NCBI GenBank assembly: GCA_030407085.1
Contig: CM059582.1
Location: forward strand, 159,642,001-159,706,000
Direction: 5' to 3'
DNA length: 64,000 nt
From: Trichopria drosophilae
Taxonomy: Eukaryota; Arthropoda; Insecta; Hymenoptera; Diapriidae
Shown here: positions 4,446-6,125 of the stretch, piece after piece
Layout: each line of letters starts with the position of its first letter
Numbering within the stretch: the stretch's first letter is position 1
The notes under the pieces: generated by a model
What the model saw: the letters and a program-made list of their open reading frames with translations, nothing else
Database searches by the model: none
What the model was told of the DNA's origin: nothing
Program-made: the position numbers and the translations under genes

Positions 4446-6125
4446 GTGCACTGTGGTTAAGGAAATATTTGTCTAAAAGATGTGATTCTAAAACTTAACT
4501 GAAGTTACATTTACGGCGCTTGTCAACATTCAATTATTAAATGAGACACGTACGTAAATATAAACAGTATTTATTGTCGCTAAGTTTCAGAATTCAACCT
4601 ATATTCAATATTACGAACTATATCTACAAGTACTTAGTGTCGCGCTGTGAAAATAACTATCAGCGCTTAAAATCTTTCTTAAACGAAAAATAGATTGAGT
4701 TAGAAAAATGTGTAATTTGAAACAAAAATCGTAAGTCTGAAGTAATAGTATCAAAATATAAAGCAGTATAATGCAGTTCCTTGCGACAAATCTTTTCAAT
4801 CCGTACATCCACAAGTAGTAGCGGGGAGCATTTATCTCATTGCCGCCAAGTGGAAATATCTCAAACTTAATCGTGTTTTCCTTCGTATTCAATTGGATTA
4901 GAAATCGTACAAGCTGTGAAAGTCGTGAGGGGAAAGTACGTAGCAGGGACCCGTCAGAGGTTAACCAACGATCGTCCGTATCCTCAGCTGAAGCCTTACT
5001 TGCTCCTTATCGTTAATGGGATCTTTCTCGATGTGGTTTCATCATATTCTTGCTCGTCTAATCCGCGTGTTCGCGATTCTTGGTCGATCACGGCTTTGGA
5101 GTCGCGGCCGATTGATCTCCGTATGACCCGAAACTGGGCACAGAGGTCGCGAAGCGCATATATTTTTGTGTAGGTACGAGGAGAACAGCGACTGGCCTAA
5201 CGGTGCGCACAAGGGCGAGATCCGAGGATCTGACGTTGCCGTTACTACAGGCGGCAGAGCAGCGCGCTCGACCTACCCTACGGGGAAATGCGCCATTGAT
5301 TTTACATCAAAGGCTGGCTAAAAAGGCGGCAAAGAAAGCTCGTATGCCGATCGAACGCTCAGACCATACGATGCAGTTCCGATGCACCGTGTTCACACAC
5401 GTCAACCTCGCCTCTCCTCCCTTACCGATCTTTCTGCAAGCAGATCACATGGCACGTTGACTATACTCTTTCGACAATCGAGACGCCCCTGCCTATAGCC
5501 TACAAGCCAAGGTGACCAACAGATAAGTCGATGAGTACTCGCCGAACAATTCGTATGGAAGAGAGTCTATTTTGAGAATTCGCGAAAAATCCAACGTGGG
5601 ATCAGTCTCAAACATGTTCATTGCAATTTCTGCAAATTTTAGGAGTGCATGAAGATATAAAAATAAATATTTTTCAATTGTTAAAAATATGAAGCAAAAA
5701 AAGTATCAATTCGTTGGTTTTTTGTCTTTGAAATTGAAGAAATTTACAGCCATAATATATGCCATAATATATTATTCAGAAGTTTCATATTAGCTAAACT
5801 CAGAGTATGGAATAATCTAATAACTATTATGCAAACTTTAGGCGTAAACTAACCATCATTAATAACGATTTTCGACGCAAGTTTCAAGCGATTTTAGGAC
5901 TGAAACCTTACTACTGTAATGTACGGATGTGCAAAAGTTTTCGCTCAGATTAATGTATTATTGTTTTAAATACTGCTTGATAAATAATTATGTTGTTCAT
6001 CATTACTATATGTGTTATGAGTGCTTTTGAAATAACGTAAATTGAGTTCATATACATATAATAATAGAGAAATTAATTTCAGGCAAATTAAATGCTTTCG
6101 AAAGTGTAGTATTGGAAAAGGATAT
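4446..6125 (-). other. pros: prospero U12-type AT-AC intron (twintron position)
   Basis: 1680-bp intron with minor-spliceosome signals: 5' site ATATCCTTTT directly after ...CAGCCTACA, branch-site consensus TTCCTTAAC, and an AC terminus 11 nt after the branch adenosine (TTCCTTAACCACAGTGCAC). Splicing joins QPT to SSTLTPMHL in frame, as in the short Drosophila isoform. In Drosophila the same position holds a twintron in which an inner U2-type intron can be used instead (established knowledge). The interior contains several short open frames (4611-4892, 4916-5173, 5203-5460) without recognisable similarity, treated as chance. Confidence 0.9.
4451..6055 (-). other. pros: candidate nested U2-type intron inside the AT-AC intron
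   Basis: Reading on from the U12 5' site, the frame is open for 23 codons (ISFSNTTLSK...) and contains a single GT, at 6055-6054 (ATAT/GTATAT). On the other side CCACAG/TGCACTCG offers a U2 AG acceptor at 4452-4451, five bases before the U12 acceptor. Using both would add 75 nt (25 codons) in frame before SSTLTPMHL. The phase agreement is exact, but the donor has a T at -1 and no good polypyrimidine tract apart from the branch region, so it may be weak or unused. The inserted residues do not resemble the fly insert. Confidence 0.4.

What the first reader, a model, noticed from the sequence alone, without database searches (positions are those of the whole stretch)
4446..6125. Consensus U12-type AT-AC intron immediately before the prospero homeodomain
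The minus strand shows ATATCCTTTT directly after a codon boundary, TTCCTTAAC as branch site, and an AC end 11 nt later; removing this intron joins QPT to SSTLTPMHL exactly. Drosophila pros has a U12 intron at this position that forms part of a twintron. Finding intact AT-AC signals here suggests deep conservation of a minor-spliceosome checkpoint on the DNA-binding domain of a neural fate factor.
Basis: partly seen in the sequence, partly recalled or inferred. Interest (0 to 1): 0.75.

Follow-up and report, generated by a model that had tools for sequence, protein, structure and literature searches.

The report
Minor-spliceosome intron in wasp prospero
This window carries the prospero gene of a wasp-like insect, whose DNA-binding part is cut off from the rest by a rare type of intron that needs the cell's minor splicing machine; that intron was already known from flies to humans, so the find is real but mostly expected.

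Summary
On the minus strand of a hymenopteran prospero gene, intron 6125..4446 (1680 nt) starts ATATCCTTTT, has branch site TTCCTTAAC (4464..4456) and ends AC 11 nt after the branch A. Removing it joins ...DGIQPT to SSTLTPMHL..., and the 51 homeodomain residues encoded in the window are identical to those of the solved Drosophila protein. This is the known U12-type AT-AC intron of prospero/PROX1, already reported as shared by fly and human, so "deep conservation" is not new and a "checkpoint" is untested. Left open is the other half of the Drosophila twintron, the nested major-class (GT-AG) intron. Here one GT precedes the in-frame stop (TAT|GTATAT, 6055); it keeps frame only with CACAG|TGCAC (4451) and scores at the median of all GTs, so the nested arm is unproven and perhaps decayed. 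Among 143 listed related proteins, 76 carry a stretch at this junction: 64 contain ISF (compatible with ATATCCTTT), 47 end SLTxx[HNY]S (compatible with TCCTTAAC and the same 11-nt spacing), 74 end in H, N or Y. So U12 signals seem often kept even where translated. Ordinary intron; modestly interesting context.

The parts
7673..10162 (-). prospero exon A (MSSEEETDCF...MTPKKKRNK), phase 0 end, 5' splice site AAG|GTGAGA
   Evidence: open frame; model; 75% identity of the spliced protein to Colletes prospero
6126..6593 (-). prospero exon B (VTDTRITPRT...DGIQPT), ends at the AT-AC intron
4446..6125 (-). U12-type AT-AC intron, 1680 nt
6116..6125 (-). U12 5' splice site ATATCCTTTT
4456..4464 (-). U12 branch site TTCCTTAAC, branch A taken as 4457
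4446..4447 (-). AC 3' end, 11 nt after branch A
6056..6125 (-). possible in-frame extension (first 70 nt of the U12 intron) of a hypothetical long isoform; weak candidate U2 5' site TAT|GTATAT starts at 6055
   Evidence: (score at the 0.505 quantile of all GTs of the strand)
4446..4450 (-). TGCAC after the candidate U2 3' site CACAG|; of the five AG acceptors in the last 70 nt of the intron, the only one that keeps frame without a stop when joined to 6055
4291..4445 (-). prospero exon C, first 51 residues of the homeo-prospero domain, 5' splice site TCG|GTAAGT
   Evidence: Pfam PF05044 E 2.7e-25; 51 of 51 residues identical to Drosophila 1XPX

Best explanation
The feature is the ancient U12-type AT-AC intron of prospero/PROX1, here in a hymenopteran. 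Expected mechanism, from what is known of U12 introns: U11/U12 bind ATATCCTTTT and TTCCTTAAC, and the minor spliceosome cuts at AT and at the AC 11 nt past the branch A, giving the short Prospero isoform (QPT-SST). Retention gives a stop after 25 codons, before the DNA-binding domain (shown by translation), so an mRNA with this exon order can encode the homeodomain only if it is spliced here. The signals and the frame are shown; use by the minor spliceosome is inferred. Whether a nested major-class intron also competes here, as in Drosophila, is open, and I judge it less likely than not.
For: Exact U12 signals and 11-nt branch-to-AC spacing. Exact frame join and identical homeodomain residues. 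The same QPT-SS junction in five of five hymenopteran representatives whose listed names carry isoform numbers. In proteins of other arthropods with a stretch at this junction, 64 of 76 contain ISF and the residue before S[SA]T is H, N or Y in 74 of 76. An Ile codon starts AT and His/Asn/Tyr codons are NAY, so there the short form cannot come from a GT-AG intron at that junction (inference). 10 of 15 proteins lacking a homeodomain read from exon B straight into ISF. Literature: fly pros twintron, human PROX1 U12.
Against: That codons spell the U12 motifs in other species is inferred from protein letters. A U12-like pair somewhere in 64 kb arises by chance in 27 of 200 simulated sequences, so the case rests on position at the exon edges, not on motifs alone.
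Confidence: 0.93

Rival explanations
1. A complete, working twintron as in Drosophila: besides the U12 intron, the major spliceosome removes 6055..4451 and makes a long isoform with 25 extra residues, ISFSNTTLSKAFNLPEINFSIIILH, in front of the homeodomain.
For: The pair keeps frame and has no stop. An AG|TG(C/T)AC acceptor just after the branch site would explain the LH or MY endings of three moth long forms (Cydia, Ostrinia, Hyposmocoma; inference). Residues 4-13 of the extension match the dipteran long-form profile at 0.0004 of the null, and residues 8-13 sit at 0.030-0.042 in three profiles (uncorrected). Three hymenopteran gene models (Camponotus, Melipona, Dufourea) have a long-like form ending SLT[TA]VN, two of them sharing QKSISLTTVN. 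[quoted passage not shown]
Against: The 5' site TAT|GTATAT scores no better than a random GT (quantile 0.505, against 0.998 and 0.992 for the exon A and C donors; approximate matrix recalled from memory). One GT in the right frame is a 1-in-3 accident. The low null fraction of residues 4-13 comes mainly from S-N right after ISF; residues 6-13 reach only 0.046-0.075. No purine run longer than 5 nt in the 250 nt after the site.
Confidence: 0.35
2. The intron has become GT-AG only: the U12 signals are remnants and splicing uses a major-class pair.
For: Long-like gene models exist in three hymenopterans (Camponotus, Melipona, Dufourea).
Against: U12 signals are perfect and exactly spaced, whereas the sole in-frame GT is weak. 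The three hymenopteran long-like models differ in the part before SLT, and one skips QPT, as I would expect of gene predictors that cannot place AT-AC introns (my reading). Five other hymenopteran representatives are short forms.
Confidence: 0.04
3. A chance or mis-assembled arrangement without function.
For: U12-like pairs occur somewhere in 27 of 200 simulated 64-kb sequences.
Against: Both motifs lie exactly at exon edges fixed by protein homology, with a spacing compatible with 47 of 76 other long-like arthropod proteins.
Confidence: 0.01

Closest known systems
Drosophila melanogaster prospero twintron (Otake 2002, Scamborova 2004, Borah 2009; not seen, known here only through papers that cite them)
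   Same: Same gene, same intron position, AT-AC termini, homeodomain exon directly downstream
   Different: In Drosophila a nested GT-AG intron gives a 29-residue longer isoform (PMC3564746) controlled by a purine-rich element bound by Hrp36/Hrp38 (PMC8329584, passages). Here the nested pair is only a weak 25-residue candidate and no purine-rich run is seen beside it.
Human PROX1 U12-type AT-AC intron (PMC2831892 Table 2, passages)
   Same: Orthologous gene, intron and subtype according to that table
   Different: Listed as U12 only, not as a twintron; its sequence was not examined here.
SRSF10 nested U12/U2 module (PMC8329584, passages)
   Same: AT-AC U12 intron enclosing U2 sites is the architecture to compare with
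   Different: Unrelated gene; the competing U2 path there includes an exon with a poly-A site.

Membership tests
U12-type (minor) AT-AC intron | 5' splice site ATATCCTT | tested here: met
   ATATCCTTTT at 6125..6116; the consensus itself is recalled
U12-type (minor) AT-AC intron | Branch site close to TCCTTRAY, branch A about 10-14 nt from the 3' end | tested here: met
   TTCCTTAAC, 11 nt; consensus and range recalled
U12-type (minor) AT-AC intron | Removed by the minor spliceosome in vivo | not testable with these tools
   No RNA data; no snRNA gene in the window (Rfam at gathering thresholds: no match in 64 kb); the rest of the genome was not reached
prospero/PROX1 gene | Homeo-prospero domain and prospero N-terminal regions | tested here: met
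   PF05044, identity to 1XPX/1MIJ, 71-75% identity over the whole query to five hymenopteran prospero proteins; the rest of the domain was not found in the window
prospero twintron (nested U2 intron) | In-frame GT-AG pair inside the AT-AC intron | tested here: inconclusive
   One frame-keeping pair, 6055/4451, with a 5' site of median strength
prospero twintron (nested U2 intron) | Purine-rich intronic enhancer near the U2 5' site | tested here: not met
   Longest purine run in the 250 nt downstream of 6055 is 5 nt; the only TAGGG in the intron is at 5280, 775 nt away
prospero twintron (nested U2 intron) | Both isoforms expressed and developmentally switched | not testable with these tools
   No expression data

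The most novel reading that the evidence does not exclude
In this wasp lineage, possibly in Hymenoptera at large, the major-class arm of the insect prospero twintron has decayed. The intron is back to U12-only and every Prospero protein with a homeodomain depends on the minor spliceosome. That would break the view that the insect twintron is fixed, and would make a natural comparison between switchable and locked states of the same gene. A companion reading: in lineages that keep the long isoform, the U12 donor and often the branch site are exonic, and the peptides ISF and SLT are shaped by splice-signal selection rather than by protein function.
Probability: 0.4. Interest if true: 0.45.

Novelty: new member of a known kind. 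Interest (0 to 1): 0.3.

Why it matters
[quoted passage not shown] Knowing which insects keep both arms tells whether the switch is essential or dispensable. Here the U12 arm is perfect and the U2 arm is doubtful, which makes the question directly testable by RNA-seq in Hymenoptera. The census also suggests that U12 signals can persist as coding sequence, so they might be tracked across species from protein isoforms alone.

Tried and rejected
Long isoform through the acceptor upstream of the branch site (TTTTAG|ACAAAT, 4473), the arrangement that the SLT endings of most beetle and fly long forms suggest: rejected here, because with the only GT (6055) it adds 97 nt and shifts the homeodomain frame; acceptors at 4488 and 4499 bring in stops and 4494 shifts the frame. 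My first long model used 73 instead of 70 nt of extension and was corrected.

Conserved long-form peptide beyond ISFSN: tested against 30380 stop-free 13-mers from the window, with profiles from 42 species (17 dipteran, 20 beetle, 5 others). Residues 4-13: 0.0004 (flies), 0.26 (beetles), 0.013 (all). Residues 6-13: 0.046, 0.075, 0.051. Residues 8-13: 0.042, 0.037, 0.030.

DNA of relatives: viral contigs and genome-contig scans with the homeodomain confirmed none. The genome search on the window's own assembly was unreachable five times. Rfam at gathering thresholds: no match in the window. Scamborova 2004, Borah 2009, Janice 2012 and a PubMed id recalled for Mount 2007 are not held. A search for U12-type, minor intron and Hymenoptera gave two papers, seen as a listing only, neither with prospero in its title or in the shown start of the abstract. 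Slips in the notebook: entry 3 gives 44 short-form proteins, the right number is 52; entry 1 puts the microexon candidate one base off (one search is right).

Full report
What is there. The minus strand of the window holds the 5' part of a prospero gene. Exon A is 10162..7673, exon B 6593..6126, exon C 4445..4291. The spliced protein, 1037 residues, is 71-75% identical over its whole length to prospero of Colletes, Belonocnema, Bombus, Microplitis and Diachasmimorpha. A tree of 19 rows puts it in a fork of 16 rows (100/100) made of the window, ten named hymenopterans and five unnamed sequences; its place inside is not fixed, and it pairs weakly (81/94) with the chalcid Eretmocerus, itself a long branch. 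The 51 residues of exon C are identical to those of Drosophila Prospero in PDB 1XPX and hit the homeo-prospero domain. None of seven short words of the later part of the domain, searched as exact strings in six frames, is in the window, so the next intron is probably longer than 4.2 kb.

The intron. Between exons B and C lie 1680 nt, 6125..4446. They start ATATCCTTTT, carry TTCCTTAAC at 4464..4456 and end AC 11 nt after the branch A. Removal joins DGIQPT to SSTLTPMHL in frame, the same junction as in five hymenopteran database proteins (SSM for SST in Bombus). Retention meets a stop after 25 codons. In 200 Markov copies of the strand the 10-nt donor occurs 0.225 times per 64 kb and a branch site with a well-placed AC 1.435 times; at two fixed positions this is of order 1e-10, although an unplaced pair turns up in 27 of 200 copies.

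Known state of the art. Lin et al. 2010 list pros intron 2 as AT-AC, twintron in fly and U12 in human PROX1 (PMC2831892, passages). Janice et al. 2013 call the U12 intron ancestral and the nested U2 sites early in insects, giving a protein 29 residues longer in fly, with the arrangement apparently fixed in the insect cases (PMC3564746, parts 1 and 2 of 3 of the text). Reviews describe control by a purine-rich element bound by Hrp36/Hrp38 (PMC8329584, passages) and preferential splicing of the nested major intron in early and the outer minor intron in later embryogenesis (PMC6865273, passages). The papers most likely to treat other insects (Mount 2007, Janice 2012) could not be seen.

The other half of the twintron. 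In the window the reading frame of exon B runs 75 nt into the intron before the stop, and that stretch holds a single GT, at offset 70: TAT|GTATAT, 6055. Of five AG acceptors in the last 70 nt, only CACAG|TGCAC (4451) gives a stop-free in-frame product, with 25 added residues. With a rough donor matrix recalled from memory, 6055 scores at the 0.505 quantile of all GTs on the strand, whereas the exon A and C donors are at 0.998 and 0.992. There is no purine run above 5 nt in the next 250 nt. The nested arm is therefore not supported by sequence, though a weak regulated site cannot be excluded.

Comparison at protein level. The two searches (120 listed of 314 hits; 120 listed of 419 hits) gave 143 distinct listed proteins, all of which were classified. 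The rows are representatives of 90% clusters, so the numbers are not frequencies of isoforms. 52 are short (no insert), 76 have an insert or an unclear stretch before S[SA]T-LTPMHL, and 15 lack the homeodomain. Of the 76, 64 contain ISF as first such motif (3 LSF, 1 MSF, 1 VHF, 7 none); that it follows PT or a variant directly was seen by eye in the listing, not counted. 74 end in H (55), N (12) or Y (7); one A and one F. 47 of 76 end SLTxx[HNY]S: Coleoptera 23 of 25, Diptera 14 of 21, Hemiptera 4 of 6, Hymenoptera 3 of 3, Crustacea 1 of 8, unnamed 2 of 2, Lepidoptera 0 of 7, others 0 of 4; 10 more are near matches and 19 have neither.

Reading of that comparison. ATA TCC TTT reads I-S-F and TCC TTA ACN reads S-L-T. 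The SLTxx[H/N/Y] spacing equals 11 nt from branch A to the final base, as in the window, whose DNA read in that frame would give SLTTVH. So in many insects the U12 donor, and often the branch site too, appear to be exonic in the long form: the acceptor of the nested intron would then lie upstream of the U12 branch site. Where SLT is missing (seven of eight crustaceans, four of seven moths that lack even a near match) it may lie downstream, or the branch site may differ. An Ile codon begins AT, and no register at that junction creates GT, so where a species has both forms (Photinus pyralis P0037 and P0081, Culex quinquefasciatus P0033 and P0074) the short form should not be a GT-AG product. This inference rests on gene models and on protein letters, not on DNA.

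Hymenoptera. Five representatives whose listed names carry isoform numbers are short forms. The three long-like ones (Camponotus, Melipona, Dufourea) differ in the part before SLT, and Dufourea even lacks QPT; on the other side, all three end SLT[TA]VN and the two bees share QKSISLTTVN, which could mean a shared acceptor. Habropoda and Eretmocerus models run into the intron as ISF... and end. Beyond ISFSN the window's extension resembles other long forms only marginally. This fits, but does not prove, loss of the major-class arm; long forms could be hidden inside the clusters.

Verdict. A correct, well-placed and mostly expected observation: an ortholog of a known U12 intron. The open and testable point is whether this lineage still has a twintron at all.

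Noticed in passing
7321..7310, minus strand: Candidate 12-nt in-frame microexon, ttcag|CCTGCCTTTGAG|gtacgtg (PAFE), between exons A and B, right after the basic stretch KKKRNK. First seen by eye, then found as the only candidate in the intron under a filter (pyrimidine-rich acceptor, 3-36 nt, in frame, donor score 4 or more), which 4 of 1000 Markov copies of the intron also pass. At the same junction three weevil proteins have DF[LMV]PFK (P0009, P0017, P0029), Bombus YFPPQ, Diachasmimorpha FFNSQ, and 122 of 143 proteins no insert (16 not matched).
   Followed up: partly
7609..7598, minus strand: TTCTTTAATTCA directly after an AG reads FFNS, like the Diachasmimorpha insert FFNSQ at this junction, but no GT close by would keep the frame (read by eye). 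Possibly a decayed microexon or chance.
   Followed up: no
about 4875..5624: GC-rich block (46-56% GC in 150-nt windows) inside the AT-AC intron, with 22-37% GC in the windows beyond; no Rfam match at gathering threshold; perhaps an intronic regulatory element.
   Followed up: no
related proteins P0072, P0077, P0079, P0089, P0092, P0108, P0109, P0116: Eight of eight listed crustacean prospero models carry inserts starting ISF or LSF at the same junction, which hints that nested major-class splicing may predate insects, whereas the literature seen puts it early in insects; gene models only.
   Followed up: partly
related proteins P0066, P0070: Two leafhopper long-like models start DSPRNG instead of ISF after PT, so the U12 donor motif or its register may have changed there.
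   Followed up: no
related proteins P0047, P0051, P0053: Hymenopteran models differ by a short insert (WGPQ, RDLQHSN) after NNHIEV in the prospero domain, perhaps a further alternative splice event.
   Followed up: no
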